Assembly (NCBI GenBank): GCA_014860455.1
Contig: JACZJQ010000293.1
Coordinates: 1 to 53,008, forward strand
Direction of reading: 5' to 3'
DNA: 53,008 nt
Source of the DNA: Bryobacteraceae bacterium
GTDB lineage: Bacteria > Acidobacteriota > Terriglobia > Bryobacterales > Bryobacteraceae
Both the position numbers and the translations under genes were made by a program. The first letter of the stretch is position 1, and every line of letters starts with the position of its first letter. The notes below the pieces were generated by a model, which saw nothing but the letters and a program-made list of their open reading frames with translations, had not been told where the DNA came from and ran no database searches. This document shows, piece by piece, positions 16,853 through 40,540 of the stretch.

Positions 16853-16859
16853 AGCCACG

Positions 16860-20050: not shown

Positions 20051-22262
20051 TCCTCCGCCTCAGCCTCGCCCTGCTACCCGTGATGCTCTCAGCCGCACCG
20101 GCCGAGGATTGCTGGCAACACGCCAAGTCCGGCCGCCGCGACCAGGCGCTCTCCTGCTTCCTCATCGCAACCCGCTCCAACGACGCCTGGGCCCAGGCCG
20201 AGGGCTTCTGGTATCTCGGCGACTTCAAAGCCTCCAACGAAGCCTTCCGCGCCGCTGTGAAGAGCCGCGACAAAGACCCGGAAATCCGCGTCCGCTGGGG
20301 CCGCATGTTCCTCGAACGCGGCAACACCTCCGACTCCGCTGACCTGTTCAACGAAGCCCTTGCACTCAAGCCCGCCTACCCGCCAGCCCTGCTCGGCATC
20401 GCCCTCACCGCCGCCGAATCCTACGACCGCCGCGCCCTGGACTACGCCGCCCAGGCGTTGAAGGCCGACCCCAACCTCGTTGAAGTCCGCGAACTCCTCG
20501 CCGCCCTCCACCTCGAAGACGTCAACCACTCAAAGGCCCGTGAGGAAGCCGAAGCCGCCCTCAAACTCTCGCCCAGCGCCCTCGACGCACACGCCCTCCT
20601 CGCCACCATCGAAATCCTCAACGACCGCGCCTCGCTCGACCCCGCCTCGAATCCGCCGCTGGCCAAGATGCTCGCCGCCAACCCGGTCTACGGCCATGGA
20701 TTCGCCCGCATCGCCCACTGGCTGGTCCTCAACCGCCGCTACTCCGACGCCATCGCGGCCTACCGCCAAGCCCTGGCCCTGGACCCCTCGCTCGACCGCG
20801 CCAAATCCCAGCTCGCCATCAACCTCATGCGCATCGGCGAAGACGCCGAAGCGCGCAAGCTGCTCGTCGAATGCTACGAAAACGGGCTCCGTAACGCCGC
20901 CACCGTCAACACTCTGCGCCTGCTCGACTCCTACCCGCGCTTCAGGACCATCAAGACCCCCCGCGCCATCATCAAGCTCCACTCCTCCGAAGCCGACCTG
21001 CTCGAACCCTACGTCGTCCGCGAAACCGAACGCGCCATCACCACTTACGAAAAGAAGTACGGTCTCACTCTCCCCGGACCCGTCCAACTCGAGTTCTACC
21101 CCGACCACGAAGACTTCGCCGTCCGCACCATGGGCATGCCCGGTCTCGGCGCTCTCGGCGTCACCTTCGGCCTCGCCGTCGCCATGGATTCGCCCTCTGG
21201 CCGCCCGCCCGGCGAATTCCACTGGGCCAGCACCCTCTGGCACGAACTCAGCCACGTCTTCGCCCTCGTCGCCACCAACCACCGCGTCCCCCGCTGGTTT
21301 ACCGAGGGCCTCGCCGTCCACGAAGAAACCGCCACCAACCCCGAATGGGGCGACCGCCTCGCTCCGCCCATCGTCCAGGCGATGAAGGAAAAGAAACTGC
21401 TGCCCATCGCCACCCTGGACCGCGGCTTCATCCGCCCGGCCTATCCGCAGCAGGTGATCGTCAGTTACTTCCAGGCCGGACGTATCTGCGACTACATCCA
21501 GCAGCGCTGGGGCTGGGCTAAGCTCCGCGAGATGCTGGACCTCTTCAAACAGGTCCGCCCCACGTCCGAAGTCGTCCAGACCGCCCTGAGCATGACGGCT
21601 GAGGACTTCGACAAACAGTTCCTCGCCTGGCTCGAAAAGGAACATGCCACTCCGCTGGCCGGCTACGACGCCTTCATGAAGGGCCTCAAACAGCTCAAGC
21701 AGGACCTCGCCTCCAAAGACGACGCCGCCCTTCTCAAAACCGCCGCCGCCATGGAAGCCGCTTACCCCGAATACGTCGAATCCGGCAACCCCTACGAAAC
21801 CGCCGCCGATGCCCTCATCCGCACCGGCGACAAACCCAAAGCCCGCGAATGGCTCTGGAAATACGTCCGCCGCGGTGGCCGCTCACCCGAAGCCATCCAA
21901 CTCCTCTCCAAACTCGAAGAGGAGGCCGGCAACGTCGAAAAGGCCGTCGAAGTCCTCGAACGCCAGCTCTGGATCTACCCGGTCAAGGACGAAGCTCTCC
22001 ACAGCCGCCTCGGCGAAATGCGCGCCACTCTTGGCCGCTGGCCCGGCGCCGCCGAAGAGTTCGCCGCCGTCGTCGCCATGAAGCCGGCAGACCCGGCCCA
22101 GGCCCACTTCCGCCTCGCCAACGCATATAAGAACACCGGCCGCCTCGACGCCGCCCAGGAACACGTCCTGCTGGCGCTCGAAGCCGCGCCCGGCTACCGT
22201 CCGGCGCAAAAACTGCTGCTCGAATTGAATTCATTGGGCGACAAGCCCCAGGGAAGGCAACC

Positions 22263-22266
<4 letters not shown>
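20047..22266 (+). CDS. secreted TPR protein with MA-clan peptidase domain
   Basis: 739 residues from GTG 20047, within the previous stop (GTGA) and opening a signal peptide (MILRLSLALLPVMLSAAPA). An upstream extension of this frame is only the shadow of the previous gene. TPR-like helices fill about 25-300 (for example AEGFWYLGDFKASNEAFRAA in part) and again 560-739. Between them is a gluzincin domain: STLWHELSHVF has HEXXH at 399-403, and Glu420 in RWFTEGLAVHEE is the third ligand. The layout is that of peptidase-MA-like proteins with TPR arms. It is probably periplasmic and may act on envelope proteins. It overlaps the MoxR gene by ATGA. Confidence 0.85.
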
Positions 22267-23282
<1,016 letters not shown>

Positions 23283-23288
23283 CCATCC

Positions 23289-24176
23289 ATGCACCAGCGG
23301 TTCCTCGACCCGCAGATTCTGGCCGGCATCGCCAACCTCGAGTTGACGGCGCGCACGGTTGTTGACGGCTTCATCGCCGGCCTGCACCGTTCGCCCGACT
23401 TCGGCTTCTCGCAGGAGTTTGCCGAATACCGCCAGTATGTCCCCGGCGACGATCTGCGCTACGTCGATTGGAACGTCTACGCCCGCTCCGGCCGGCTCTA
23501 CCTGAAGCGCTACCACGGCGAAACCAATACCCGGCTTACCGTCCTGCTCGACCGTTCGAACTCGATGGAGTTCGCCTCCCAGGGCATCCGCAAAATCGAC
23601 TACGCCCGCTACCTCGCCGCTTCCATGGCCTACCTGGCCCACCACCAGCGCGACGCCGTTGGCCTGATTACCTTCGACGACGACATCCGCGACTTTATCC
23701 CGCCGTCCTCGCGCCAGGGCCAGTGGATGAAGGTCCTGCATGCCATCGACCGCGCCGAACCCGGCCACCGCACTGACTTCGCCAAACCGTTCCTGCAGTT
23801 CCAGGAAGTCCTCCGCTCGCGCGGCATCGTCCTGGTGGTCTCAGACTTCTACGCCGACCCCGAAACCGTCGCCCGCACCGTCGCTCCGCTGCGCCACCGC
23901 GGCAACGACGTCATCCTGTTCCATGTCCTCGACCCCATGGAGGTCGCCCCCGTCTTCAACGAGCCCAAGATCCTCATCGACCTTGAAACCGGCCAGGAGA
24001 TGGAAGTCTCGCCCGAATACGCTGTGGGCCCTTACCGCCGCAAGATCGACTCCCACCTCGCCGCCATGAAAAGCGAAGCCGAAGCCGCCGGGCTCACCTA
24101 CCTGCTCGCCGAAACCAACAAGCCGCTGGACCGCGCCCTGCGCGAATACCTTTCCATCCGTCAGGGGAGGCTCTAA
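23289..24176 (+). CDS. DUF58-domain protein
   Basis: 295 residues. The DUF58 signature is clear: EFAEYRQYVPGDDLRYVDWN at about 40-60, ARSGRLYLKRY after it, then a vWA-like strand with LLDRSNSM (DxSxS intact) and later GIVLVVSDFYADPE. DUF58 proteins associate with MoxR ATPases and are taken to be the soluble vWA partner. No signal peptide. It ends in TAAATG, directly abutting the BatA-like gene. Confidence 0.95.
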   Translation: MHQRFLDPQILAGIANLELTARTVVDGFIAGLHRSPDFGFSQEFAEYRQYVPGDDLRYVDWNVYARSGRLYLKRYHGETNTRLTVLLDRSNSMEFASQGIRKIDYARYLAASMAYLAHHQRDAVGLITFDDDIRDFIPPSSRQGQWMKVLHAIDRAEPGHRTDFAKPFLQFQEVLRSRGIVLVVSDFYADPETVARTVAPLRHRGNDVILFHVLDPMEVAPVFNEPKILIDLETGQEMEVSPEYAVGPYRRKIDSHLAAMKSEAEAAGLTYLLAETNKPLDRALREYLSIRQGRL

Positions 24177-26159
24177 ATGGGACTCCTCGCGCCCCTCTTC
24201 CTCACCGGCCTCGGCCTTCTCGCGTTGCCCCTCTGGCTCCACCTGCTTAAGCGCCACCGCTCGACGCCGCAGAAGTTCAGCTCGCTCATGTTCTTCGAGC
24301 GATCGACTTCGGCCAGCGTCAAGCAGCGCCAACTCGACTACATCCTGCTCCTGCTGCTGCGCCTGGCCCTGCTCGCCCTGGCCATCTTCGCCTTCACCCG
24401 GCCCTACGTCCTCAGCGCTCTGCTGCCCGCTGAAAAGGCCGGACTGACGATCATCGCCATCGACGAATCGGCCAGCATGGGCGCTGAAGACAAGCTCGAA
24501 CGCGCTAAGAACGGCGCCGTCGGCGTCATCGACTCTCTGCCCGACGGCGCCCGCGCCCGCATCCTTGCCTTCGGCGCATCCACCCATCTGCTCACCGATG
24601 CCATCTCTGAGAAGGACCAACTGAAAGCCGCCATCCGGTCAGTGAAAGTGACCGCATCGCGCAGCAGCCTTGGCGATCTCGCCGCGTCGCTCCGCAACAT
24701 CGGGCGTTTGACAGCCGAGGCCAAAACCGTCCACCTGTTCAGTGACCTGCAACGCTCGTCGATGCCGGCGGCGTTCAACGAACTCCGCCTCGACTCGGGC
24801 ATGGCGCTCACCGTTCACCCGATTGAGGGCAAGCAGAAGGAGAACTGGACGGTCGAATCCGTCAACGCCCCCACGCGCCTGCTCGACGCCTCCACCGCCC
24901 GCATCGAAGCCGTCCTGGCCGGCTACCATACCCCCGCCGCCACCCGCACGGCCGTGCTCCGCGCCGCTGGCCGCGAAGTGGCCCGCAAGCCCGTTGCCGT
25001 GCCCGCCGCCGGCAAGGCGACGGTGGTTTTTGAAGGCGGCCTGAACATCCCTTACGGTTTCGCCCAATGCGAAGTGGCTCTGCTCGAATCCGATGCCCTG
25101 GACTCGGACAACGCCTTCCTGTTCGCCGTCAACCGCGCCGACCCGGAGCGCATCCTGCTGTTGGATAGCACTTCAAGTAATGCCAGTTATCTGTATGTAA
25201 GTACGGCACTTGCCTCTGCCGCCGGAACATTGTTCAAGGTCGAACGGTCAGGCCCCACGCCCTCGTTCACCGGCGTTTCGGCCGTCGTCCTGTCAAACCC
25301 AGCCGCACTGAACCCGGCCGCCGAGGAGAGCCTGCGCAGCTATATCCGCTCGGGTGGCGGCGCGTTGATCGCCGTCGGACCGGCCACCGCCGCCGCTGGC
25401 CGAGTCCCTGTAGCCGGGCTGAAGATCTCCGGCAGCCGCTATGCTGACCGCTCAGGCGAACGCTTCGAAAGCGTTAGTTCCGCCGACCAGGCCCATCCCG
25501 CCATGGAGGGCTCCGGCCGCTGGGAATCTGTGCGCTTCTACCAGACCTTCCAGATCGAACCCGGCGAAGCCCGTGTCATCGCCCGGTTGAGCGACTCTTC
25601 GCCGCTGCTGCTCGAAGCCCGCCTCGGCGAGGGCCGAATCCTGATCCTGGCTTCGACTATCGACGGCCTGGCCAACGACCTGCCGCTGCAACCGGCGTTT
25701 CTCCAGTTCGCCGAGAAGTCCATGCGCTATCTCAGCAGCGCCGGCGAACGTGTCCGTTCGGTCGCCGTCGATTCGAATTACGAACTGCGCCAGGCAGGCA
25801 CGGCAGCCACAGTTGATGTCATTTCGCCATCGGGCCAGCGCGCACTGTCGGTTTCCGAGGCCGCCGAGGCGCGGTCGATCCTGCTCGACGAAAAGGGCTT
25901 CTGGACCATTCGCCGGGCCGGCGGCCGGGCTGAAATGCTGGCCGCCAACATAGACCGCCGCGAATCGGATCTTGAAGCCATGCCCGCCGAATCGGCCGAA
26001 CTTTGGCAAGGCGCGGCAGGCTCGGGCGTGGCTGCGGGCACAGTGGAATCCGATCGCGGCACGCGCCAGTTCTGGCCGTGGCTGCTGGCCCTGGCGCTCG
26101 TCGCCGGGCTGGCTGAATCGTGGGTGGCATCGAAGCATCTAAGGAGGGAGGCGGCATGA
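24177..26159 (+). CDS. BatA-like membrane protein with vWA domain
   Basis: 660 residues. The N-terminal aerotolerance-regulator domain is present: a membrane helix (about 4-20), LKRHRSTPQKFSSLMFFE, then a second helix DYILLLLLRLALLALAIFAF at about 58-77. A vWA domain starts near 95 with AIDESASM (DxSxS intact). A large extracytoplasmic beta region and a GATase-like segment follow (about 320-500), and a last helix near the C-terminus. A stretch around 25160-25220 is AT-richer with uncommon codons. Its stop overlaps the next ATG (ATGA), and AAGGAGGGAGG within its end is the next gene's ribosome site. Confidence 0.9.
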   Translation: MGLLAPLFLTGLGLLALPLWLHLLKRHRSTPQKFSSLMFFERSTSASVKQRQLDYILLLLLRLALLALAIFAFTRPYVLSALLPAEKAGLTIIAIDESASMGAEDKLERAKNGAVGVIDSLPDGARARILAFGASTHLLTDAISEKDQLKAAIRSVKVTASRSSLGDLAASLRNIGRLTAEAKTVHLFSDLQRSSMPAAFNELRLDSGMALTVHPIEGKQKENWTVESVNAPTRLLDASTARIEAVLAGYHTPAATRTAVLRAAGREVARKPVAVPAAGKATVVFEGGLNIPYGFAQCEVALLESDALDSDNAFLFAVNRADPERILLLDSTSSNASYLYVSTALASAAGTLFKVERSGPTPSFTGVSAVVLSNPAALNPAAEESLRSYIRSGGGALIAVGPATAAAGRVPVAGLKISGSRYADRSGERFESVSSADQAHPAMEGSGRWESVRFYQTFQIEPGEARVIARLSDSSPLLLEARLGEGRILILASTIDGLANDLPLQPAFLQFAEKSMRYLSSAGERVRSVAVDSNYELRQAGTAATVDVISPSGQRALSVSEAAEARSILLDEKGFWTIRRAGGRAEMLAANIDRRESDLEAMPAESAELWQGAAGSGVAAGTVESDRGTRQFWPWLLALALVAGLAESWVASKHLRREAA

Positions 26160-29100
26160 GTTCACTGGAGCTGTTCAGGCACTGGATTGAATCGGTCGAA
26201 CGTCGGTTCCGGCGCCGGGCGCTCATCGCTGGCGTAGCCTCGATCACATGTTCGGCACTGGCCGCAACCCTGTTGGCCGTCTGGGTGGCCAACCGTTACG
26301 CCTTCAGCGACACAAGCCTGTTGTGGGCGCGTCTCGGCGTCTTCCTGGCTATCGCTCTGGCTGTTGCTTTCGGACTGGCAATTCCCCTGGTCCGCTCCAA
26401 CCGCCGCGGCGTCGCCCAGATCGCCGAACGCCGTGACGACGGTTTCAAGGAACGCGTCCTCACCCTGGTGGAAAGCCCTGAAGGCAATCCCTTCCACGAG
26501 ATCGTCGCCGAAGAGACCCTGCGCACCGCCGCCCACTGGCCCGCTGAGCGGTTCGTGCCCGGTCTGGCGCTGGCCAGCCTGGCCTCGGCGGCCGTCGTCT
26601 TCGCCGGTGTTCTGGTCTGGCTCGCAGCCGCGGGGCCTGGCGCATTCGGCCACGGTACGGCGCTGCTGTGGCTCGGCAAGCCGCCCTCCGGCGAAGCGTT
26701 CTATCGCATCGACGTGACGCCTGGGGACACCAAGGTCCGCAAGGGATCCGACCAGGTGGTCGAAGCCCGGCTGATCGGTTTCGAGGCCGTGCAAGTTCGC
26801 CTGATGGTCCGCCTGCCGGGGCAATCAAACTGGGAAGCCGCGCCGATGGAGCCCAAGACCGGCGTCCCCGGCACATATGGTTTCCTGATGGCGTCGTTGA
26901 TGGAAGACACCGAATACCGCGTCGAAGCCGGCCGGCTGCAGAGCACGGTTCACCGGCTGACGGTGGTAGATCTGCCGTCGGTGGAGAAACTCCGCGTCAC
27001 CTATAACTACCCGTCGTGGCTCGGCCTCGCCCGCCAGGTGGACGATCCAGGCGGCGACCTGCGCGCCGTCGAAGGCACCGAAGCGCTGATTGAAGTGATC
27101 ACAAACCGGCCGCTGGCCTCGGGCCAGTTAGTCCTGGACGACGGCCGCACGATCGCGCTCGAGAAGACAGGAGAGAGAACCTCGGCCGCCCGCATCCGCA
27201 TTGAGCGTGAAGCCGTTTATCACGTCGCAGCCATCGATGGAGGCGAATCGGTCCGCATCAGCGAGGATTATTTCATCGAACCGCGGGCCGAAAAGCCGCC
27301 CGAAATCCGTATTGCGCGCCCAGGGCGCGACGCGCGGGTGAGCCCCATCGAAGAGGTGGTGGTTGAGGTTGAAGCCAGCGACGACTACGGACTCACGGGC
27401 CTCGAACTGCGCTATTCGGTCAACGCCGGCCCGGAGAAAGCAGTCGCCTTCCCACAGGGCCGCGGGACCAAGGAGGGCAAGGGCAAGACGCTGATCGCGC
27501 TCGAGGATTACAATCTCCAGCCGGGCGATCTGTTGACGATTTATGCGGTTGGGCGAGACGCGCGGACGTCGGTCCAGACCGATATGTACTTCATCGAAGC
27601 CCAGCCGTTCGAGAAGGAATACCGGCAGGCGCAACAGGCCGGCGGCGGAGGTGGAGGCGGAGGCGGAGGTGAGCAGCAGGAGAACATCACCAAGCGACAG
27701 AAGGAGATCATCGCCGCCACATGGAATGTGATCCGCTCAAAGAAGACGGCCGCTGCGCTGCGCGAGGACGGCGAGTTCCTCACCGGCATCCAGAAAAAAC
27801 TGGGCGAACAGGCGCGCTCGCTGGCCGGGCGCATGCAGAGCCGTGAGCTTTCCGGGACCAACGAAGAGTTCAAGAAGTTCGCCTCGGAGATGCAGTCGGC
27901 GGCGCGGGCGATGGATCAGGCGTCGGACCAGTTGAAGGGGCTGCGTTGGCGCGAGGCTCTGCAGCCGGAGCAGAAGGCGCTGCAGCATCTCTTGCGCGCC
28001 GAGTCCATTTTCAGAGAGATCCAGGTGGCTTTCGGGCAACAGGGCGGCGGAGGCGGAGGCGGCGGACAGAGCCGCGACCTCGAGAGCCTCTTCGACCTCG
28101 AACTGGACACCAACAAAAACCAGTACGAGACCGGCAACTCCTCGCAGCAGAACGCCGGTAACCGGGAACGCCAGGTGGACGAGGCGCTGAAGAAACTGGA
28201 AGAGTTGGCCAAACGCCAGCAGCAGTTGGCCGAGCAGCAACGACGCAACAACCAGCAGAGCTTCCAGCAGCGCTGGGAGCAGGAGATGCTCAGGCGCGAA
28301 GCCGAGCAGTTACGGCGCCAGATGGAAGAGCTTTCCCGGGGCCAGAGCGGCCAACAGGGTCAGCAGCAGGCACAGCAAGGCCAGCAGGGTCAGCAAGGTC
28401 AACAGGGACAGCAAGGTCAACAAGGCCAGCAGGGCCAGAGCGGCCAGCAGGGACAAGCGACAGCGCGGCAACAGGGTCAACAAGGCCAGCAGGGCCAGGC
28501 CGGTCAAGCCGGGCAGCAGCGTTCGCTGGGCGAGATGGCTCGCGGAGGTCAGCAGCCAGACCCGCGCATGAACAGGGCTTTGCAACAGCTGGAGCAGGCC
28601 ATCGAAGACATGCGCCGGGCGCAGCAACAGGGTCCCGCGGATGCGCGCAGGGCCGCCGAACGGATGGCCGATGCCGAACAGTCGCTCGGGCGGATGCGCC
28701 GCCAGCAGACCGGCCAGACGATGGACGATCTCGCCGGCAGGGCCCGGGATCTGGCTGGGCGTCAGGAAGAGCTTGAGAAGCGGATTGCGTCTACGTTTGC
28801 ACCGCGGCCGGACGGCCAGCCGGCAAAGACTTCAGACGAACAAAACAAAGCTCTTGCGGGCGAGAAAGACGCGCTCAAACAGGACTACGAACGGCTTGAA
28901 CGCGACATGCAGTCGGCTTCGCGGGCCATGGCCGGCAGCCAGCCTCAGGCGTCGTCGCAGGTGCGCGGCGCTCTGGGCGAGGCGCAGCAAAACGAACTCC
29001 GGCTGCGCCTGCAGTATGGCGCGGACCTGATCCGCCGGGGTTTGGGCAGTTTCCAGAGCCCGCGCGAGCGTGTGGTTTCGCAGATGATGCGGCTGTTGAG

Positions 29101-29917
29101 CGACCGAATGGAGCGCGCGCGGCAGGCAGCGGCCGGCGAGCGTCCGGGCGACAGTGAGGCCCGGGAATCGATCGAAACGGCGTTGAACCAGATCGAACGC
29201 GCCCGGCGGGCGTTGAACCGGGCCGGGCAGCAGCAGGGTCAAGCTCGTCAACAGGGACAGCAAGGGCAGCGGGGCCAGGCGGGTCAGCAAGGTCGACAGG
29301 GGCAGCAGGGCCAGAACGGACAGCAAGGGCAGATGGGACAGCAAGGACAACAGGGGCAGCAGGGGCAGCAAGGCCAGGGCGGGCAGCAGGGGCAGGGAGG
29401 CGAGCGCGGCCAGGGCGGCAAGCAGGGCGAGCGCGCCGGACAGAGCCAGTATCCCCGCAAGCAGGGCCAGACACCGGGCGGCGGCAGCATGTCGCCGGGC
29501 TATTCGGCGATGAACGATGGGACGAACCAGGGCCAGTGGGGTGGACGGCAGGGCGGGACGCCGTCGAGCGCCGAGGTCGAGCGGGCGTATGCCGAAGCCA
29601 TGCGGCAGTTGGAGGCGATGGAAGACGGCGACGCGGCCGGGATGGAAGGGACGCGGGCCGAAGTGCAGTCGCTGATCGAAGAGATGAACCGGCTGGATCC
29701 GAAGCGTTTTGCCGGTAATCCGAGGCTGTTCGAGATGCTGAGGCAGTCGATTCTGCCCCGGATGGAGCAACTTGAGTTGCGTCTCAGGCAGCAGTTGGGT
29801 GAGGGCGGGGGGGCGGTGAGGGGACTCACCGGGGCGAAAGTGCCGCCGGGCTATGAGAAGGCCACGGCGGAGTACTACCGACGACTGAGCGCGCAGCCCG
29901 CGGCAGGGAAGAAGTGA
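26156..29917 (+). CDS. DUF4175-type membrane protein with Gln/Gly-rich linkers
   Basis: 1253 residues from ATG 26156, fixed by the strong AAGGAGGGAGG upstream and the ATGA overlap. Three membrane helices lie at about 22-45, 58-79 and 135-158; the rest is extracytoplasmic. A beta-rich part (about 170-480) is followed by a Gly run (about 495-506), helical coiled-coil segments, a second Gly run near 630, and two long Gln/Gly tracts (bases about 28340-28515 and 29228-29400) in which QGQ-type units repeat imperfectly. Helical segments rich in Arg/Gln/Glu separate them (EMLRREAEQLRRQMEEL). DUF4175 proteins commonly close MoxR/Bat-type operons. Role unknown; a long elastic or rod-like envelope protein is plausible. 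Confidence 0.82.
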   Translation: MSSLELFRHWIESVERRFRRRALIAGVASITCSALAATLLAVWVANRYAFSDTSLLWARLGVFLAIALAVAFGLAIPLVRSNRRGVAQIAERRDDGFKERVLTLVESPEGNPFHEIVAEETLRTAAHWPAERFVPGLALASLASAAVVFAGVLVWLAAAGPGAFGHGTALLWLGKPPSGEAFYRIDVTPGDTKVRKGSDQVVEARLIGFEAVQVRLMVRLPGQSNWEAAPMEPKTGVPGTYGFLMASLMEDTEYRVEAGRLQSTVHRLTVVDLPSVEKLRVTYNYPSWLGLARQVDDPGGDLRAVEGTEALIEVITNRPLASGQLVLDDGRTIALEKTGERTSAARIRIEREAVYHVAAIDGGESVRISEDYFIEPRAEKPPEIRIARPGRDARVSPIEEVVVEVEASDDYGLTGLELRYSVNAGPEKAVAFPQGRGTKEGKGKTLIALEDYNLQPGDLLTIYAVGRDARTSVQTDMYFIEAQPFEKEYRQAQQAGGGGGGGGGGEQQENITKRQKEIIAATWNVIRSKKTAAALREDGEFLTGIQKKLGEQARSLAGRMQSRELSGTNEEFKKFASEMQSAARAMDQASDQLKGLRWREALQPEQKALQHLLRAESIFREIQVAFGQQGGGGGGGGQSRDLESLFDLELDTNKNQYETGNSSQQNAGNRERQVDEALKKLEELAKRQQQLAEQQRRNNQQSFQQRWEQEMLRREAEQLRRQMEELSRGQSGQQGQQQAQQGQQGQQGQQGQQGQQGQQGQSGQQGQATARQQGQQGQQGQAGQAGQQRSLGEMARGGQQPDPRMNRALQQLEQAIEDMRRAQQQGPADARRAAERMADAEQSLGRMRRQQTGQTMDDLAGRARDLAGRQEELEKRIASTFAPRPDGQPAKTSDEQNKALAGEKDALKQDYERLERDMQSASRAMAGSQPQASSQVRGALGEAQQNELRLRLQYGADLIRRGLGSFQSPRERVVSQMMRLLSDRMERARQAAAGERPGDSEARESIETALNQIERARRALNRAGQQQGQARQQGQQGQRGQAGQQGRQGQQGQNGQQGQMGQQGQQGQQGQQGQGGQQGQGGERGQGGKQGERAGQSQYPRKQGQTPGGGSMSPGYSAMNDGTNQGQWGGRQGGTPSSAEVERAYAEAMRQLEAMEDGDAAGMEGTRAEVQSLIEEMNRLDPKRFAGNPRLFEMLRQSILPRMEQLELRLRQQLGEGGGAVRGLTGAKVPPGYEKATAEYYRRLSAQPAAGKK
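28340..28515 (+). repeat. imperfect Gln-Gly-Gln coding repeat, first tract
   Basis: Tandem imperfect copies of a 9-base unit close to CAGGGTCAG / CAAGGCCAG encode runs of QGQ within the DUF4175 protein. Synonymous changes between units show that it has drifted at DNA level while keeping the protein pattern. A second tract lies at about 29228-29400. Confidence 0.8.
29228..29400 (+). repeat. imperfect Gln-Gly-Gln coding repeat, second tract
   Basis: A second array of units such as CAGCAAGGGCAG, encoding QQGQ-type sequence in the DUF4175 protein, separated from the first by about 240 residues of helical sequence. Confidence 0.8.
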
Positions 29918-30361
29918 GCCGGACGGGGCTTGGCCAAACGAAGCTGGGGGACTGACCGCACCCCTGGAAATCATCCCGGCGACCCGCACTCTTTGTTCGC
30001 GGCCTCCGCGAGTAAGGGGCTGCATTGTCAGCACCTTTGGTGGCCACAGCGGGGCCATTCGGACTCCTTGTAGTCGGAGCTCGTCATGAGGCTTGTATTG
30101 GCTTGGCGGGGTTGACGAAACGAACTCCCGGCAGTGCCGTCCGGGCCGAGGACGGAGAATTGTCTTCGTAGATTCAACAGGATACCAAGATAAGAGGCGT
30201 CGCGGCCGAAGTGCTGTGGCAGGTTTGAGAACGTGGGCGGGGAATCAATCTCCGACCCCTCAGAGCGTTCCCGGACCCGAATACCCCCTCATCCCGCGGA
30301 AACGCGAGAACGGGCAACCGGGAGCGCTTCTGGAGAGCAAGGCAGTGTGCGAGATTTCGAT
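29918..30361. other. long intergenic gap at the strand-composition switch
   Basis: 444 bases between the plus-strand DUF4175 gene and the end of the minus-strand matrixin gene; the longest gap between confident genes in the window. I see no credible ORF (frames here are shadows of the protease gene), no clear terminator, no DnaA-box cluster and no tRNA-like cloverleaf. The only structure found is a short hairpin, TCGCGG-CCT-CCGCGA at 29997-30011. It lies at the right edge of the zone where + strand composition changes from C-rich to G-rich. Confidence 0.5.
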
Positions 30362-32872
30362 CTACCGGACGGTGATCTTTACTATTCCGAGCGGCTTGGA
30401 GTCGAAGACAATCGTGAGAGGAACCTCGGCTCCCACCGCCGTCGATGAAGAAAGCGCCATGGCGATGGCGTATTGGCCGGCTTGCCCGGCAACAGGCATC
30501 ACCGAGACGATGGCGTGTTCCACTGGACCGGAGGCGGCCTGGAAACGCTTGACGTCGGGCGCTGGGCCGAGATCGGGGAGATTGCTCACCAGCACCTGGA
30601 TCAGTTCTCCGGGCTTGGGCGCGTTGGCTCCGGTCGCGTCAGCGCCCATGATGTTCTGAACCTTGGAGATCATCGGCGGCGCAGGTTCAATGGTGACCAG
30701 AGCAGGCAAAGCGGCGTTGCCGCTGAAGGCGAGTTGCAGGAGCGCGGCGCCTGGCTCAACCGCGGCCGGGACGGCGATGTGGACCAGTCCGGACTCGGCT
30801 TCGATGCTCATGACCAGGGCCGGAATGCCGGCGATGGTGGCCGAAGTGACGGCCGGCGAGGCGGATTCGGGCAACTTGCCCACCGGCACGATCAACTCCC
30901 CACCAGGGTAGGGCGCGCCGCTGGAGATCTTCGACATGACCACATAAGGCGTGGAGTTCGCCGGCAGGATGCTGAGTTGTTCGGCGGCGGTAATCCTCTT
31001 CAGTCCAGCCCAGAGCGAAACCGGGACCGCGCCCGCCGGGGCCGACGGCGAAACGGCAACATGCACAAGAACCTTGGATTCGGAGACCGGGATGTAATTG
31101 AGCGCGGTGAGTTCGCCGGAACCGAATGCGGCCTGCAGCGAGCCGGAGGCGAGATCGATGCCCTCGGCGGCGATCTCGACAAGGCCCTCGGCGCCGGCGG
31201 GAATCGACGGGGTCACCAGCCGGATGGTGGGCTCGGCGGCGGATTCGAATGTGTAGGAAGGCGACTTCGCGCCGAGCGACATCAGAGTGCTCTGGCCGTC
31301 GGGATTCAGGACGGCGACAACGGAGACGTGGCCGAACGGCGCTGCGGGCGGCTTCACGACCAGGCGTTCGGGCTCGAAAGCGGTGACCGCTCCGGCGACA
31401 CCGTCGAACAGGACCTTGGAGGCTTCGGCGAAGGGCCCGCCCTCGATGGTGATGGTGGAGTCGGGGTTGGTCGTGAGCGCGGTGATGGTGGGCGCTTGCT
31501 GTGCGAGGATGCGCAGCGAGGAGGGCGCGACGTGGGTTTCGCCATTGAGGGTGAAGATCAGGTGGCGGTGGCCGGCCGGGGCGTCCTGGGACATCTGGAT
31601 GTCGAGTTGGACATACGATGTGGCGTAGGGGTAAGCCTTGACACCGCCTGGGGCGATCGATTCCGGCGCATCAAGCAGCGTGACGCCGAGGCCGGGCATG
31701 GGCGCGTCGCCGGTGGTCATTCCATATCCATAGAGAATGAGTGAGGATATGCCGGCGGAAGCGACCATCGAGGCCGGTTTGACGGCCTCCTGGCCGATGA
31801 AAGTGTAGGTCTGGACCGAGTGCAGATTGACCTTGTCGCGCGATCCGGCAGAGAAGTCGTAGCCGGTAGACTCGCCGGGCTTCTGAAAGTTGATCGGGAT
31901 CTGGGGCGTCGAGGTGTCGCCTGGGTAGAACGCGGTGTTGAAGGCGGGGCCAGGCAGAAGGAGACGCTCGGGGTCGGAGGGATCGACGGCAAAGCTGAGG
32001 TTCACCGGCTGGGGTTCGCCTTGGAGGGCAGGCGGGAGGGGTTGGGCGTAGAGGTAATAAGGACCCGGAGCGAGGCCTTCGATCTTGTAGGAGCCATCGA
32101 GACCGGTGAGCACCGAGACGGCGGGCCCGGCGGGGGTGATGGCGGTGACCGAGGCCAGATGGACGCCGGTGGCGCCGAGAGCGACGCGGCCGGCGATGGT
32201 TACGGTGTTCTGGCGGAAGGTGGCGGATGGATAAAGGACGGAGAGGCCGATGGAGTCGTCGAGGGTGAGCGGCGAGGCTTTCGATGTGGTGCGGGTGATC
32301 TCGGTGGACATGACGCCGCCGCTCCAGGAATGCTGGAGGCCGAGCGCGTGGCCGAGTTCATGGACCAGGGTGAGAAAGAAGCGCTCGGTATAGACGGGCC
32401 GTGCGGTGGGCGGGGCAAGGTTAATGGGCAGGATCACCTGCGAGCGGACGATGGGGACGTAGGCGCCGTAGGCGTCGGAGACAGGATCGAGTTTGTTGGT
32501 CGGGCCGCCCATGGCGATGATGCCGGGCGGCATTTCGTCGAACACGATTTCTACATGCGGCGAGGCGATGGGACGGGATTCCGAGGACAGTCCGCCGAAG
32601 GTGAGCTTCAGCTCCGATGTCGGGATCTGGTTCCAAACCTCTGCGGCGGCCCGGACCTGGCTGACCAGAGAGGTGAAGCTGTCGCCGGGGGCGTATTCCT
32701 GTGCGCCGGTCTCGCGGATGACGATGGGGAGCCTTTTGCCGGGCAGGGCAGCGGGGTCGAAGCGGGCGACCAGGCGTTCGTAAGCGGCTGAATAGGTGAT
32801 GAAGTGGTGGTAGGCGGTGGCGGCAGGGGCCAGAAGGAGCGAACAGGCCAGCAATGCGGAGCGAAGCTTCAT
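30362..32872 (-). CDS. secreted matrixin-like metalloprotease with IPT/beta-sandwich domains
   Basis: 836 residues. A signal peptide (MKLRSALLACSLLLAPAATA) leads to a metzincin domain: HELGHALGLQH at 171-181 is the complete HEXXHXXGXXH zinc site, and SGGVMS after it is the Met-turn. A carboxypeptidase-regulatory-like beta domain follows (about 220-290: GLDGSYKIEGLAPGPYYLYA), then several IPT/TIG-like modules to the C-terminus, the last resembling the C-terminal domains common in Solibacter relatives. It is predicted to be an exported or surface protease. Its ATG overlaps the stop of the upstream small gene by 4 bases, so the two are co-translated. No lipobox or sorting tail is seen. Confidence 0.9.
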   Translation of the reverse strand: MKLRSALLACSLLLAPAATAYHHFITYSAAYERLVARFDPAALPGKRLPIVIRETGAQEYAPGDSFTSLVSQVRAAAEVWNQIPTSELKLTFGGLSSESRPIASPHVEIVFDEMPPGIIAMGGPTNKLDPVSDAYGAYVPIVRSQVILPINLAPPTARPVYTERFFLTLVHELGHALGLQHSWSGGVMSTEITRTTSKASPLTLDDSIGLSVLYPSATFRQNTVTIAGRVALGATGVHLASVTAITPAGPAVSVLTGLDGSYKIEGLAPGPYYLYAQPLPPALQGEPQPVNLSFAVDPSDPERLLLPGPAFNTAFYPGDTSTPQIPINFQKPGESTGYDFSAGSRDKVNLHSVQTYTFIGQEAVKPASMVASAGISSLILYGYGMTTGDAPMPGLGVTLLDAPESIAPGGVKAYPYATSYVQLDIQMSQDAPAGHRHLIFTLNGETHVAPSSLRILAQQAPTITALTTNPDSTITIEGGPFAEASKVLFDGVAGAVTAFEPERLVVKPPAAPFGHVSVVAVLNPDGQSTLMSLGAKSPSYTFESAAEPTIRLVTPSIPAGAEGLVEIAAEGIDLASGSLQAAFGSGELTALNYIPVSESKVLVHVAVSPSAPAGAVPVSLWAGLKRITAAEQLSILPANSTPYVVMSKISSGAPYPGGELIVPVGKLPESASPAVTSATIAGIPALVMSIEAESGLVHIAVPAAVEPGAALLQLAFSGNAALPALVTIEPAPPMISKVQNIMGADATGANAPKPGELIQVLVSNLPDLGPAPDVKRFQAASGPVEHAIVSVMPVAGQAGQYAIAMALSSSTAVGAEVPLTIVFDSKPLGIVKITVR

Positions 32873-33408
32873 CGCACGGCCCCTTCGGTGGAACGGACCA
32901 TGCGACGGAGCCGTTCGAGGGTCAGGGTGAGAGGCGTCGAGGTGACTTCCTTGCCGGATTTGTCGACCAGTTCGGCGTCGATCACGCCGCGGGTGAGGAC
33001 AGCTTCACCGGCGGAGTTGAGCTTGAGGTCGAACAGCCCCTGCGAGAGTCCGATGATGTGAAGGATTCCGCTCCGGCTCTTCCAGATGAAAACGACGTAT
33101 TCGGTGGCGGGCTTGAGGACAGGGCTACCGGCGATGGTCTGGCGGACACCGCCCGCGATGCCGCCGGGGACCGATACGTCGAGCGTCGCGCCGGCTTCGC
33201 CTTTCAGCTTCTCCGAGACGTTGAGCTTGTATACGGTGTAGACCATGGGGCCGCGCTGGACGCTGGACCTGGCGGCGACCGTCGCGCGGACGACGATGTG
33301 GCTCTTGGCGGCCATCTCTTCGAGGGAGAGCTTTTCCAGAGTGGTGGCGGGCGCCTGGAGTGCCAGGGCGGCGAGGGCAACCACGATTCCGGACAGGCGG
33401 AAGAGCAT
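32869..33408 (-). CDS. small secreted protein of unknown function
   Basis: 179 residues from ATG 33406-33408, chosen because it opens a signal peptide (MLFRLSGIVVALAALALQAPA); a TTG start at 33453 is possible but adds 15 basic residues. I do not recognise the family. The sequence alternates strands (VVRATVAARSSV, VYTVYKLNVSEKLKG, YVVFIWKSRSGILHIIG) and looks like a single beta-barrel or sandwich. Four-base overlap with the matrixin gene suggests a functional pair, for example an inhibitor, chaperone or partner of the protease. That is inference from coupling only. Confidence 0.75.
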   Translation of the reverse strand: MLFRLSGIVVALAALALQAPATTLEKLSLEEMAAKSHIVVRATVAARSSVQRGPMVYTVYKLNVSEKLKGEAGATLDVSVPGGIAGGVRQTIAGSPVLKPATEYVVFIWKSRSGILHIIGLSQGLFDLKLNSAGEAVLTRGVIDAELVDKSGKEVTSTPLTLTLERLRRMVRSTEGAVR

Positions 33409-33523
33409 CGCTACACTACTGAGCAATCGGCGCGCCAAACGAATCAGCCGCAAGTGATTGAAAACAGGGCGGCGTTACAGGCGCGATGAGTCAACTGGAC
33501 ACAACCGGTGGGCCAAGGGTGTC

Positions 33524-35404
33524 TCAGGTGGATTCGCGTTCGCGGACAACCAGGACTGGGACGCCGACAGCATGACGTACTTCATTAATAGTAGCCCCGA
33601 AGATCATGTCTTTCAAGCCTTTATGGCCATGGGCGCCCATTACAAGCAGGTCGGCATCGACGGCGAGGGCGGTGCGGACGATCTGTTCGCTGACCTTTCC
33701 GCCGTGGGTGACGATCAATTCGGCGTCGAGGCCGGCGGAGACGAGTTGGAGGCGGAGAGTCTCGAGGTAGGCGTGGCCTTCTTCGACCTCGGCGGTGGAG
33801 GCGTCGCTGCCGTAGATCAGACTGGTGACGCCTTCCTCGACGTGGAGCAGGAAGAGTTTGGCGCCGGGTCCGCGGGCGAGCGAGGCGGCGTGGAGCAGAG
33901 TTTCGGAGTCGAGGCGGGAGTGGTCCAGCGGAACCAGGATGCGGCAGAAGGGAGGTGCGGCGAGTTTGATCTGCAAGCCGGCGGTTTTGGCGAGTGGGAC
34001 GACGGGGACGGTTGGGGCGACGGTCTTGCGCAGCCAGGGTTCGGCGATAAGCCAGAGGAGCAATCCGCCGACGGCGAAGTTGACGGGGAGGAGGATGTAG
34101 GCGAGGGCGGGAGAGGTGGCGAGCCAGCCGGAGATGGTGCTCCAGGCGAGCATCCCGTTGAGGGCGAGGATGATGGAGGCGGCGGTCCAGGCCAGGGATT
34201 TGACCCAGACGGGGCTGGCGAAGGCGCCCATGCGCCTGGCGTCGGAGGTGAAGCGGATGAGCGGGATCACGGCGAAGGGCAGTTGGAGGCTAAGGACGAC
34301 CTGGGAGAAGATGAGCAACTGGTAGACGGCCTGTTCGCCCACATAGAGGATGGTGAGTACGGCGGGAACGACGGCGACAAGGCGGGTGATGAGGCGGCGC
34401 AGCCAAGGCCTCATGCGGATGTCGAGAAAGCCTTCCATGACGATCTGGCCGGCCATGGTGCCGGTGATCGTTGAGCTTTGGCCGGCACAGAGCAGGGCGA
34501 CGGCAAAGGCGACGGCGGCAAGCCCTGAGCCGAGCAGGGGTTCGAGGAGGTGATGGGCCTGTTTGATTTCAGTGACGACGATGCCGTTCTTGAAGAAAGT
34601 GGCGGCGGCGAGGATGAGGATGGCGGCGTTGACGAGCAGGGCGCCATTCAGCGCGATGACGGAATCAATGAGATTGAATTTGCAGGCGTCGCGTTTGGCG
34701 GCGTCGCCGTCCGAAATGCGGCGGGTCTGGACGAGCGAGGAGTGCAGGTAGAGGTTGTGCGGCATGACGGTTGCGCCGAGGATGCCGATGGCGACGTAGA
34801 GGTTGTCGAAGTTGAGGCGGGGAACGAGGCCGCCGGCGACTTCGGACCAGACGGGTTTAGAGAGGAAGATCTCAATAAAGAAGCAGCCGGCAATGATGGT
34901 GATGAAGGCCAGGATGATGGACTCCATGACGCGGATGCCGAAGCGTGTGAACCAGAGGACCAGGAAGGTATCGAGCGTAGTGAGCAGCACGCCGTAGATC
35001 AGCGGGATGCCGAAAAGGAGGTTGAGGCCGATGGCGGCGCCGAGCAATTCGGCGAGGTCGCAGGCGGCGATGGCGAGTTCGCAGAGAAACCAGAGGGCCT
35101 TGGAGACGGCTTTGGGGTAATGAAGGCGGCAGGCCTGCGCCAGGTCGAGACCGGAGGCGATGCCGAGCCTCGCACTGAGGGTCTGGAGCAGGATGGCCAT
35201 GGCGTTGGAAAGCACCAGGACCCAGAGCAGTTGGTAGCCGAAGCGTGCGCCGCCTTCGATGTCGGTGGCCCAGTTGCCAGGGTCCATATAGCCGACCGAG
35301 ACGAGGTAGGCGGGACCGGCGAAGGCGAAGACACGACGCCAGAGCGACGGGTGGGACGTCGAGACCGAGGAGTGGACTTCGGATAGAGAACGATTTTCGT
35401 TCAA
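33524..35404 (-). CDS. mntH: Nramp-family metal transporter fused to a UspA domain
   Basis: 626 residues. The Nramp part spans about 20-460: DPGNW at 41-45 in helix 1 and MPHNLYLHS at 214-222 in helix 6 supply the Mn2+/Fe2+ ligands, so metal transport is expected. From about 487 a universal-stress-protein domain is fused (CRILVPLDHS, then GAHGHKGLKDMIFGATINEV with the G-2x-G-9x-G-T nucleotide loop at about 590-606), facing the cytoplasm after the last helix. The start is TTG at 35402-35404, inside the stop of the YfhO-like gene (TTGA overlap); no ATG is available before helix 1. The fusion may couple transport to ATP or a nucleotide signal (inference). Confidence 0.93.
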   Translation of the reverse strand: MNENRSLSEVHSSVSTSHPSLWRRVFAFAGPAYLVSVGYMDPGNWATDIEGGARFGYQLLWVLVLSNAMAILLQTLSARLGIASGLDLAQACRLHYPKAVSKALWFLCELAIAACDLAELLGAAIGLNLLFGIPLIYGVLLTTLDTFLVLWFTRFGIRVMESIILAFITIIAGCFFIEIFLSKPVWSEVAGGLVPRLNFDNLYVAIGILGATVMPHNLYLHSSLVQTRRISDGDAAKRDACKFNLIDSVIALNGALLVNAAILILAAATFFKNGIVVTEIKQAHHLLEPLLGSGLAAVAFAVALLCAGQSSTITGTMAGQIVMEGFLDIRMRPWLRRLITRLVAVVPAVLTILYVGEQAVYQLLIFSQVVLSLQLPFAVIPLIRFTSDARRMGAFASPVWVKSLAWTAASIILALNGMLAWSTISGWLATSPALAYILLPVNFAVGGLLLWLIAEPWLRKTVAPTVPVVPLAKTAGLQIKLAAPPFCRILVPLDHSRLDSETLLHAASLARGPGAKLFLLHVEEGVTSLIYGSDASTAEVEEGHAYLETLRLQLVSAGLDAELIVTHGGKVSEQIVRTALAVDADLLVMGAHGHKGLKDMIFGATINEVRHAVGVPVLVVREREST

Positions 35405-37641
35405 GCGTCTATGTTAACCGAACGCCGGCGGCGATCGCGGAGCCAGACCGAAGCGGCGGCAAGCAGGGCGAGCAGGGAGAGGGCGGCTCCGGCATAGACC
35501 GAAGCGGGGCGGTAACGGAAGGCGACCTGATGGCGGCCTTGCGGGACGGCGACGGCGCGGAGGCCGCCGTGGGCTTGGAGGATGGGGGCTTCGACGCCGT
35601 CGATATGGGCTTTCCAGCCAGGGAAGAAGGTATCGGAGAGGATGACGAGGCCGCGGCAGCCCATGTCGGCCTGGATGCTGACTTGGGAGGGTAGGTGGGA
35701 GAGAATCCGCACCTGGTCCGGGCGATCCGGGCAGGATTCGACGGTGGGCGCGGAGCCTTCGATGAAGGTTGCCTGGCCGAAACGATCCTTGAAGTGGTCG
35801 TTCATCATCATGGCGTTGTGGCCGGGGAGCCAGGAGAGGATTTCGTGGACGGAGAAGGCGCGGGGCAGGGCGGATGGGTCGCGGAAGACTTTTAGTCCGG
35901 ATTTGCCTTCGAAGGCAAGTTCGGTGTGGTTGCCGGCGGGTTGAGTGCGGACGGCGAAGGCGATGCCGCGCAGGCGTTGCCCTTCGGGGCTTTCCAGGCC
36001 TATTTGCGTGGCGTTGAGGGTGAGGCTGGCCAGATAGCCGGCGCTGGTGGGGACGCCGTGCCAGGCGCCGAAGTTGTAGCGGATCTCGTCGTCGTTCGTG
36101 ACAGTGCGGGGGAAGCCCGGCTGGGCGCGGAGAAAAGCGGCGATGTCGTTGTGTTCGGAGAGGGCGGTGAGGGGGGCGACGCGGTCCTTTTCGGTGAAAG
36201 CGGGCATGAAGTAAGAGTTTTCTATCGAGGCCTCGACGGCGACGATGAGGCAGGCGGAAACGGCGGCGGCGGTGAGCGATAGGGCGCGGCGGCGAGCGGT
36301 GGAGAGCAGGAGGGCGAGGGCGAAGGCGCAGAGGGCGTTGACCAGGACGCGGTCCGAGCCCAAGCCCCTGAAGTCATTGACGATGGCCCAGCCGGCACGA
36401 AGGGCGAAAATCGCGCAGGCAAACCAGCAGAGGAGTTTCGCGGCGCGGGCGGTGGAGGCGGGGTCGCGGCGGAGACGGTCCAGCACCATGGCGGCGAGCA
36501 AGGCGGCGGCGAGTCCGGTTAAGTAGACGGCGGCGGAGGCGTTGCGCGCCTTTTCGACCAGGGGGACGAGGCTATAGATGATGCCGTGCAGCGGCGAGGC
36601 GTCAACCATCGAAAACAGCAGAGCGGCGGCGGCGATCGAGGCCAGCCAGCGGGTTTCGCGGCGGCGGCGGGAGAGCCAGAAACCGAGCAGAGCAAGGGTG
36701 AGGGTGGCGGCGCCGAGGTAGGGCGAGGCATGGGTGTGCATGCCGGGCAGGACGATGCCGAGCAGGTCGGCGGGGCTGGTGCGCCAATCGCGGTGGAGGT
36801 GCCAGGGGACTTTTTGGTCCCAGCCGATGGGGTCAGGCAGTCCGACCCAGCGGACCGAATGTTTGCCATATTCGTAAGCCGGCAGGATCTGGACGGCTCC
36901 GGCGCAGAGGGCGACGGCGAACAACAGGGCCGAGGCGGCGAGAAGTTTCCAGCGTTTCCGGCTGATTGCGTTCCAGGCCAGGATCGAGCCGGCCGCGAGC
37001 GAGAGAAAAATGGGGGCCTGGTGGTGGCCGCTGAGCCAGGACATGCCGAGCGCGATGCCGCCATAAAGGGCCGAATGCCAGATGCGGATGCCGCGGCAGA
37101 TGCGGAAAGCGAACATCAACACCAGCGGAGCCCAGACGGCACCGTTGAGCATCTGGGGCCATTCGGTGTCGCCCATCCAGCCGAGCAGGGTGAAGGCCGT
37201 TCCGGCAAACACGGCGGCGGCGCGGCTGAGGCGGAGATCTCGAGCGAGCAGGTAGGCGAACCAAGCCCCCATGAGGTGGATGGCGATGAAGTACCAGTTC
37301 AGCCAGCCGGTCTTGATGAAACCGTCGCGCAGCGGCATGGCGTAGAGCAGCCAGTTCAAGGGGTAAGCGACGCCGGGTTGGGCCTGTCCGATGAGGGGCT
37401 GGCCGTGCCAGGAGTATGGGTCCCAGAGCGGGATGCGGCCGGCGTGCCATTCGCGGGCCTGGAGTTGGAGCCAGGGCAGGACCTGGGAGGTGGTGTCGGA
37501 GCCGGTGAGCCAGGTGAATTTGGCGGAGACGGTGAGCTTCCAGTAGAAGCCGCAGACGAGCAGGACAAGAAAGAGGGCGGCGGCCCAGTGCGAGAGGCCC
37601 GATGGTGGTTGAATGCGTCCGGGGTGGTGGATTTCGGCCAT
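35401..37641 (-). CDS. YfhO-like polytopic membrane protein
   Basis: 746 residues from ATG 37639-37641, fixed by GGAG 7 bases upstream; a TTG 45 bases earlier has no support. About 12-14 hydrophobic helices are spread along the chain. The first periplasmic loop reads GSDTTSQVLPWLQLQAREW and then IPLWDPYSWHGQPL, typical of YfhO/GT-C-like proteins. The C-terminal third is a soluble beta domain with ILSDTFFPGWKAHIDG and a last helix ending in RDRRRR. YfhO proteins are proposed to glycosylate cell-wall polymers with lipid-linked sugars. It shares a four-base overlap with the Nramp-UspA gene, which is unexpected. It is divergent from the FecR gene over 102 bases. Confidence 0.85.
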   Translation of the reverse strand: MAEIHHPGRIQPPSGLSHWAAALFLVLLVCGFYWKLTVSAKFTWLTGSDTTSQVLPWLQLQAREWHAGRIPLWDPYSWHGQPLIGQAQPGVAYPLNWLLYAMPLRDGFIKTGWLNWYFIAIHLMGAWFAYLLARDLRLSRAAAVFAGTAFTLLGWMGDTEWPQMLNGAVWAPLVLMFAFRICRGIRIWHSALYGGIALGMSWLSGHHQAPIFLSLAAGSILAWNAISRKRWKLLAASALLFAVALCAGAVQILPAYEYGKHSVRWVGLPDPIGWDQKVPWHLHRDWRTSPADLLGIVLPGMHTHASPYLGAATLTLALLGFWLSRRRRETRWLASIAAAALLFSMVDASPLHGIIYSLVPLVEKARNASAAVYLTGLAAALLAAMVLDRLRRDPASTARAAKLLCWFACAIFALRAGWAIVNDFRGLGSDRVLVNALCAFALALLLSTARRRALSLTAAAVSACLIVAVEASIENSYFMPAFTEKDRVAPLTALSEHNDIAAFLRAQPGFPRTVTNDDEIRYNFGAWHGVPTSAGYLASLTLNATQIGLESPEGQRLRGIAFAVRTQPAGNHTELAFEGKSGLKVFRDPSALPRAFSVHEILSWLPGHNAMMMNDHFKDRFGQATFIEGSAPTVESCPDRPDQVRILSHLPSQVSIQADMGCRGLVILSDTFFPGWKAHIDGVEAPILQAHGGLRAVAVPQGRHQVAFRYRPASVYAGAALSLLALLAAASVWLRDRRRRSVNIDA

Positions 37642-37726
37642 GCCAGACTCCGATGGTGTGAGTAAAAGCTTAGCAGAATCAATCAAATGAGGGATGGCAG
37701 GCGGATTGCAGTGGATATGGCTGAAG

Positions 37727-37736
37727 AAAGGAGGTG
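37727..37736 (+). promoter_or_regulatory. strong Shine-Dalgarno deciding the FecR start
   Basis: AAAGGAGGTG matches the anti-Shine-Dalgarno almost completely. It is spaced 7-8 bases from ATG 37744 but only one base from ATG 37738, so the later codon is the likely start. Confidence 0.75.
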
Positions 37737-37743
37737 GATGGCC

Positions 37744-40461: not shown

Positions 40462-40497
40462 CGTAGTCGATCCTGACATCCAAACGAACTTCCCCTG

Positions 40498-40540
40498 GGC
40501 CCGGTTGGGAGACGGCTTACTCCCAGCCGGGCCTCTTTTT
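40498..40540 (+). terminator. strong rho-independent terminator after the FecR gene
   Basis: A 14-bp stem, left arm GGCCCGGTTGGGAG (40498-40511) and right arm CTCCCAGCCGGGCC (40520-40533), has one G-T wobble and an 8-base loop. TCTTTTT follows at once. Confidence 0.93.

What the first reader, a model, noticed from the sequence alone, without database searches (positions are those of the whole stretch)
25000..30400. Strand-composition switch: C-rich + strand to G-rich + strand, independent of coding strand
Sampled 60-base lines left of the zone: 3121-3180 (minus gene) G16/C28; 12241-12300 (minus gene) G13/C22; 20521-20580 (plus gene) G14/C25. Right of it: 34141-34200 (minus gene) G26/C14; 46081-46140 (minus gene) G33/C11; 48361-48420 (plus gene) G31/C10. 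Because genes on both strands follow the local bias, coding alone does not explain it. A negative-to-positive GC-skew change on the + strand is the classical sign of a replication origin; an inversion or assembly junction is the alternative. CCCTGCCC on the left and GGGCAGGG on the right (KOPS-like, pointing outward) agree with this, though skew itself favours them.
Basis: partly seen in the sequence, partly recalled or inferred. Interest (0 to 1): 0.62.

Follow-up and report, generated by a model that had tools for sequence, protein, structure and literature searches.

The report
Rearrangement junction in patchwork-skew bacterial chromosome
The abrupt change from a C-rich to a G-rich DNA strand is real, but it is most likely not the chromosome's replication origin: it is one of many such flips in this bacterium's genus, and it sits where two pieces of chromosome that lie apart in its closest held relative are joined.

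Summary
In detail: 25 of 25 one-kb blocks left of 25 kb are C-rich and 22 of 22 right of 31 kb G-rich, whatever strand the genes are on. The classical-origin reading fails. The best dnaA and parB matches are on other contigs; in the relative G003 their homologues lie in a G-rich stretch without a flip. The window has no DnaA-box cluster, and skew steps of 0.45 or more occur about 20 times per Mb in the genus. The switch coincides with a synteny break: the two halves lie on different G003 contigs at 85-91.5% identity, and the left half's neighbour there stays C-rich for 20 kb. Best reading: a rearrangement junction (less likely a chimeric contig) between blocks of opposite polarity. The unusual thing is the background: three genomes of this genus, probably Bryobacteraceae, show skew domains of 10-100 kb independent of gene strand (weaker in G002). 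Samples of two sister genera and of E. coli do not. Rises are somewhat sharper than falls in pooled data, so many local initiation sites are not excluded.

The parts
1706..29898 (+). Left block, C-rich + strand (fourfold skew about -0.6 in most genes from 4.5 to 23.3 kb); genes mostly on +, including a MoxR - DUF58 - BatA - DUF4175-like run at 22,263-29,917
   Evidence: Collinear with G003:C1:126,225-151,760 at 88-91% identity, except window 8,945-11,741 (a MacB/FtsX-like gene), which has no match at that place in G003; skew; Pfam
24177..29917 (+). Transition zone of weakened skew: BatA-like gene (24,177-26,159) and DUF4175/collagen-like gene (26,120-29,917; weak Pfam matches)
   Evidence: Fourfold skew -0.29 and -0.03; G003 copies -0.39 and -0.25 at aligned sites; G000 has G where G003 has C at 85 aligned fourfold sites, the reverse at 32
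29899..30360 (.). Junction: the synteny break between left and right blocks, in the convergent intergenic stretch 29,918-30,361
   Evidence: Alignment to G003 stops at 29,898 (C1:151,760) and resumes at 30,361 on another contig (C21:2,848)
29955..30084 (+). Dispersed intergenic repeat inside the junction
   Evidence: 12 further pieces in the own genome at 78-94% identity and one in G003; aligned; no Rfam family at gathering score in 25,000-32,000
30361..53008 (+). Right block, G-rich + strand (fourfold skew +0.35 to +0.81 in all but two of its called genes); genes on both strands
   Evidence: Collinear with G003:C21:2,848-28,313, four pieces at 85-91.5% identity; skew; Pfam

Best explanation
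The switch is a rearrangement junction, at 29,899-30,360, that puts side by side two blocks with opposite, long-standing strand polarity. It lies in a chromosome whose GC skew, where sampled, is not organised into two replichores but into a patchwork of 10-100 kb domains. Shown: the skew, its independence of coding strand, the synteny break with G003, the patchwork in sampled parts of three genomes of the genus, and that the best dnaA and parB matches lie elsewhere. Inferred: that the join is a real genomic rearrangement in one of the two lineages rather than an assembly chimera, and that most sharp flips elsewhere arose in the same way. The polarity itself is most likely laid down by strand-asymmetric mutation during replication over long residence in one orientation, then shuffled by frequent rearrangement. 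That last step is inferred and does not explain every feature.
For: Left and right blocks lie on different contigs of G003, and in G002 their homologues also lie on different contigs (C32 and C38). In G003 the sequence after the left block stays negative to about 175 kb. In the 185 kb of G003 compared with G000, 4 of 5 skew edges of 0.6 or more lie within 1 kb of a synteny break, while 24% of the compared length does; the fifth is 1.3 kb away (breaks entered by hand). Rising and falling edges are both among the four. Orthologue sense-strand skew is r=0.98 for G000-G003 (42 pairs) but r=0.09 for G003-G002 (41 pairs) and -0.70 for G000-G002 (9 pairs), so polarity is not fixed by gene within the genus. 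Skew correlation is near zero by 20-30 kb in G002 and 30 kb in G003, and a 400-kb stretch of G002 averages -0.0008. In G003, dnaA-dnaN-gyrB sits where all 2.5-kb blocks from about 22 to 62.6 kb of C28 are positive, a stretch that also holds the homologue of the parB contig.
Against: The right block also starts with a rising flip in G003, against a different 2.8-kb neighbour with only short weak matches in G000, which a single rearrangement does not explain. Pooled, rises are sharper and more numerous than falls (27 v 12 without the window; irreversibility), whereas inversions should give equal numbers. Long declines in G003 (C4 from about 45 to 150 kb, C3 from 0 to 95 kb) are not expected of a random patchwork. 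At 100 kb the skew correlation is +0.23 in G003 and -0.29 in G002. Some of the 'breaks' are ends of contigs in a fragmented draft, and searches were aimed at edges.
Confidence: 0.66

Rival explanations
1. Many local initiation sites: the chromosome starts strand-asymmetric synthesis at many places. Each gives a sharp C-rich to G-rich jump and a gradual return across tens of kb, like the N-shaped skew domains of mammals; such sites would also be fragile and attract breaks.
For: In the pooled three genomes without the window, rising edges outnumber falling ones in 20 of 20 threshold/window settings, p<0.05 in 8 of 20. Increment asymmetry is positive in 18 of 18 settings for G003 and G002 apart; pooled, surrogate p<=0.03 in 9 of 9 and block-flip p<0.05 in 4 of 9 (0.003-0.165). 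In G003, 80-kb windows with r<-0.8 (declines) are 16.0%, with r>0.8 (rises) 4.9%. Jump-and-decline shapes, by eye, in G002:C41 and G003:C3 and C4. The right block's left edge is a rising jump in both G000 and G003 with different neighbours. In G002, 42 of 62 genes in strongly skewed surroundings lie on the G-rich strand.
Against: The asymmetry is modest: in the single genomes G003 and G002, 0 of 40 settings reach p<0.05. With genes of one strand only it is weak for minus genes (p 0.24-0.29), stronger for plus genes (p 0.011-0.187). Falling sharp edges exist (9 in G003). A long rise also exists (r=0.87 over 80 kb, G003:C2), and G002 has no 80-kb trend with |r|>0.7. Orthologues of G003 and G002 do not share polarity. 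No DnaA boxes at the window switch. In G003 genes are not aligned with the supposed forks (210 of 447 on the G-rich strand). A dnaA-dnaN-gyrB locus exists in G003.
Confidence: 0.17
2. Assembly chimera: the 53-kb contig was wrongly joined in or near the repeat at 29,955-30,084; the two halves are not neighbours in the cell.
For: The two halves are not adjacent in G003. The G003 neighbour of the left block is found in G000 on contig C142, whose end corresponds to a place 1.15 kb beyond the left block in G003. A repeat sits in the junction.
Against: The longer other copies of the repeat are 79-85% identical over about 85-120 bases, and no exact 20-mer of 29,601-30,700 recurs in the other 277 kb of G000 held, so I found no exact overlap that could mislead an assembler; most of G000 was not held. 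Flips occur in other, more contiguous assemblies.
Confidence: 0.14
3. Classical oriC at 25-30 kb.
For: The sign change has the right polarity and is strong.
Against: The best dnaA and parB matches lie on other contigs, whose homologue in G003 carries dnaA-dnaN-gyrB in a row. The densest DnaA-box kilobase of G003:C28 is at 45-46 kb, dnaA-dnaN (3 of 9 near-matches), not at a flip. None of the 5 near-matches in the window lies in 25-30.4 kb. The homologous M10-Nramp genes of G002 have no such flip.
Confidence: 0.03

Closest known systems
Replichore GC skew with one origin, as in E. coli K-12
   Same: Rising sign change of + strand GC skew, independent of single genes; my detector finds a 0.30 step at 3,926,201 in E. 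coli (oriC annotated at 3,925,744-3,925,975)
   Different: In 200 kb of E. coli no step reaches 0.45 (one other of 0.3 or more, -0.31 at 3,939,801); here about 20 steps of 0.45 or more per Mb, and the window's is 0.91
Irregular GC skew of cyanobacteria that replicate from multiple sites without DnaA (Synechocystis PCC 6803, Nostoc PCC 7120; PMC7198777, abstract and passages seen)
   Same: No simple two-replichore skew in a bacterium
   Different: Here a strong, locally coherent skew with sharp flips and, in G003, a dnaA-dnaN-gyrB locus; no replication data; the strength of cyanobacterial local skew was not compared
Skew N-domains of mammals (PMC3320577 and PMC4319821 seen in a search listing only; their shape and size are recalled; on breakpoints, PMC2722678 abstract and section list)
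   Same: Sharp rises, gradual declines, breaks near edges
   Different: Bacterial and much shorter (N-domain size recalled); sharp falls also present; no measured replication programme
Anomalous skew graphs ascribed to inversions, assembly problems or several origins (SkewDB, PMC8941118, passages seen)
   Same: The same three explanations are named there for a multi-peaked Salmonella chromosome
   Different: Here a pattern in three separate assemblies of one genus, with synteny breaks at several edges

Membership tests
Bacterial chromosomal origin (oriC) | dnaA, dnaN, parAB or gidA nearby | tested here: not met
   Best DnaA match on contig C61, best ParB match on C44; none among Pfam hits of the 35 window ORFs scanned
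Bacterial chromosomal origin (oriC) | Cluster of DnaA boxes | tested here: not met
   5 matches at up to 1 mismatch in 53 kb, 8.2 expected, none in 25-30.4 kb
Bacterial chromosomal origin (oriC) | Genome-wide skew minimum | tested here: inconclusive
   Draft of 356 contigs; 5 of the other 39 steps listed in the genus are stronger
Rearrangement junction | Synteny with a close relative breaks at the flip | tested here: met
   G003:C1:151,760 against C21:2,848
Rearrangement junction | Reads span the join | not testable with these tools
   No reads held
Multiple initiation sites (N-domain-like) | Rises sharper than falls | tested here: inconclusive
   Positive when pooled, but modest; 0 of 40 single-genome settings at p<0.05
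Multiple initiation sites (N-domain-like) | Measured initiation at the rises | not testable with these tools
   No replication data

The most novel reading that the evidence does not exclude
In this Bryobacteraceae-like genus, strand asymmetry is laid down from many discrete chromosomal sites every 40-100 kb, so that skew forms a sawtooth. This would be a bacterium with many fixed or semi-fixed initiation zones, which also serve as rearrangement hot spots, alongside a conventional dnaA locus.
Probability: 0.15. Interest if true: 0.88.

Novelty: new variant of a known kind. Interest (0 to 1): 0.42.

Why it matters
GC skew is used routinely to place origins and to judge assemblies. In this genus a strong flip is not by itself a sign of an origin or of a faulty assembly: about 20 steps of 0.45 or more per Mb occur. 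Whether they are scars of rapid rearrangement or marks of many initiation sites is a clean, testable question about how bacterial strand asymmetry arises.

Tried and rejected
Coding-strand effect: rejected as the driver. Gene skew follows the flanking skew with slope 0.93-1.01; own strand adds only -0.07 in G003 and G002 and -0.12 in G000. Neighbouring genes on opposite strands correlate r=0.75 in G003 (227 pairs), 0.41 in G002 (161), 0.32 in G000 (33).

Rises at convergent gene pairs: at first 12 of 24 rises in G003+G002. Steps planted at random give 64 of 254, and after removing the strand effect the count is 8 of 23, so mostly an artefact of placement.

Drift of the genes next to the junction as proof that skew follows position: G/C differences are 85 v 32 next to the junction and 94 v 94 in the rest of the left half. 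But 4 blocks elsewhere also deviate at p<0.01 (6 of 41 in all), so this is not specific.

KOPS-like motif: follows composition. The repeat as a mark of flips: of the three contigs read around a copy, C299 rises, C79 rises at one of two places, C115 has no sign change; on C162 the stretch fetched did not reach the copy; not pursued. One search aligned an unrelated stretch by mistake and is not used. An all-site version of the rise/fall test, pooled and with the window, was weak (p 0.05-0.29). An earlier count with 6-kb windows and threshold 0.6 gave 17 rises and 5 falls, window included.

Full report
What the window is. The window is the whole of contig C58 (53,008 bases) of a 5.29-Mb, 356-contig draft genome (G000). 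The best named relatives of its Nramp-Usp protein are Acidobacteria, several titled Bryobacteraceae or Bryobacterales, at up to 66% identity. The organism itself is unnamed, so the family is an inference.

The observation. Fourfold sites show -0.15 to -0.74 in genes that end left of 24.2 kb and +0.08 to +0.81 right of 30.36 kb, for genes on both strands. The cumulative minimum is at 25,831.

Not the origin. DnaA's best match is on contig C61 and ParB's on C44 (weaker matches of both families lie on other contigs, none in the window). C61 and C44 map next to each other on G003:C28, where dnaA, dnaN and gyrB lie in a row at 44.4-49.6 kb. The 2.5-kb blocks there are positive from about 22 kb to the contig end at 62.6 kb, without a sign change at dnaA; one gene at 49.8-50.8 kb is slightly negative at fourfold sites. 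The densest DnaA-box kilobase of that contig is at 45-46 kb, 3 of 9 near-matches. In the window, 5 near-matches were found where 8.2 are expected, none in 25-30.4 kb.

A synteny break. Window 1,706-8,944 and 11,742-29,898 match G003:C1:126,225-133,469 and 133,603-151,760; window 30,361-53,008 matches G003:C21:2,848-28,313 in four pieces. In G003 the sequence beyond C1:151,760 stays negative to about 175 kb; its homologue in G000 is contig C142, whose end corresponds to a place 1.15 kb beyond the left block. G003:C21:1-2,847 has only short weak matches in G000 and G002. In G002 the M10-u194-Nramp genes keep the same order but have skew of opposite sign (-0.28 to -0.11 against +0.31 to +0.75 in G003), with no flip. 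A real rearrangement is likelier than a chimera, because the longer copies of the junction repeat are only 79-85% alike and no exact 20-mer recurs in the other 277 kb of G000 held. Without reads this cannot be settled.

The patchwork. In contigs of 20 kb or more of G003 (1,019 kb), G002 (789 kb) and G000 (153 kb), 5-kb fourfold skew has a standard deviation of 0.44, 0.25 and 0.42, with 21, 15 and 4 steps of 0.45 or more, about 20 per Mb. Of the other 39 steps, 5 are stronger than the window's 0.91. Samples of two other genera of the family (G011, 120 kb; G028, 100 kb) have 0.09 and 0.05 and no such step. 200 kb of E. coli around oriC has 0.13 and none; the detector shows a 0.30 step at oriC and one other of -0.31 (fetched). 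Correlation along the chromosome is near zero by 20-30 kb, though +0.23 (G003) and -0.29 (G002) at 100 kb, and the 400-kb stretch of G002:C41 averages -0.0008. The G-rich strand is also the A-richer one (TA skew against GC skew r=-0.33 to -0.52 in the three genomes). SkewDB gives a typical bacterial skew of about 2.5% (PMC8941118, abstract and passages). Three other Acidobacteria/Bryobacterales MAG loci also have strong local skew (L060, L062, L064), so the trait may not be confined to one genus.

What makes the patchwork. Shuffling of old polarity by rearrangement is supported by breaks within 1 kb of 4 of 5 strong edges in the 185 kb compared (24% expected by length), a falling edge among them, and by loss of orthologue correlation toward G002 (r=0.09 in 41 pairs with G003, -0.70 in 9 pairs with G000). 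It is not sufficient. Pooled, rises outnumber falls (27 v 12 without the window; 20 of 20 settings, 8 of 20 at p<0.05, but 0 of 40 for the single genomes G003 and G002), and the profile is irreversible in both genomes, though weakly for minus-strand genes alone. Some declines in G003 span about 100 kb (C3, C4), and G002:C41 shows, by eye, repeated jump-and-decline of about 40 kb; against this, G003:C2 has an 80-kb rise and G002 no 80-kb trend with |r|>0.7. In a bacterium a sawtooth would suggest many initiation zones. Cyanobacteria that replicate from multiple sites have irregular skew (PMC7198777, abstract and passages). I rate this reading at about one in six. Gene orientation is divided: 210 of 447 genes in strongly skewed surroundings of G003 lie on the G-rich strand, but 42 of 62 in G002.

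Changes at checking. On re-reading the calls I added the results against both readings that the first version left out (single-genome settings, G002 gene orientation, the long rise in G003:C2, the correlations at 100 kb, the second E. coli step, the 9-pair comparison) and corrected the place of C142's end.

Literature. The listings of searches (top rows only where more papers matched) showed no paper that I recognised as describing such sawtooth or patchwork skew in Acidobacteria. The Solibacter genome paper (PMC3174227, passages) mentions cumulative skew, in the passages seen, only in connection with GC content. Most subscription papers are not held.

Noticed in passing
window 29,955-30,084; G000 C162, C115, C299, C79, C25, C331, C121, C26; G003:C54: Dispersed intergenic repeat of about 110 bases, pieces 78-94% identical to the window copy, with tandem sub-copies on C79 and C115; no Rfam match.
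   Followed up: partly
G003:C28:44,368-62,508: dnaA-dnaN-gyrB, and the homologue of the parB contig within 20 kb, lie in a G-rich + strand; the nearest flip is at about 23.8 kb, between a gene without an NCBIfam match and gnd.
   Followed up: partly
L060, L062, L064: Three other Acidobacteria/Bryobacterales MAG loci with strong local skew (means -0.20, -0.29, -0.17), unlike most of the loci of 12 kb or more in that list.
   Followed up: no
window 33,524-35,404: Nramp transporter fused to a universal stress protein domain; relatives in several phyla.
   Followed up: no
window 9,219-11,720: MacB/FtsX-like permease gene present here and without a match at the same place in G003.
   Followed up: no
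G000:C44 6-9 kb, C64 6-9 kb, C61 3-6 kb, C3 12-15 kb: Blocks in which G and C have exchanged directionally between G000 and G003 at fourfold sites (59 v 9, 15 v 0, 30 v 11, 66 v 35); their distance from breaks was not examined.
   Followed up: no
G002 sampled contigs: Genes in strongly skewed surroundings lie mostly on the G-rich strand in G002 (42 of 62) but not in G003 (210 of 447).
   Followed up: no
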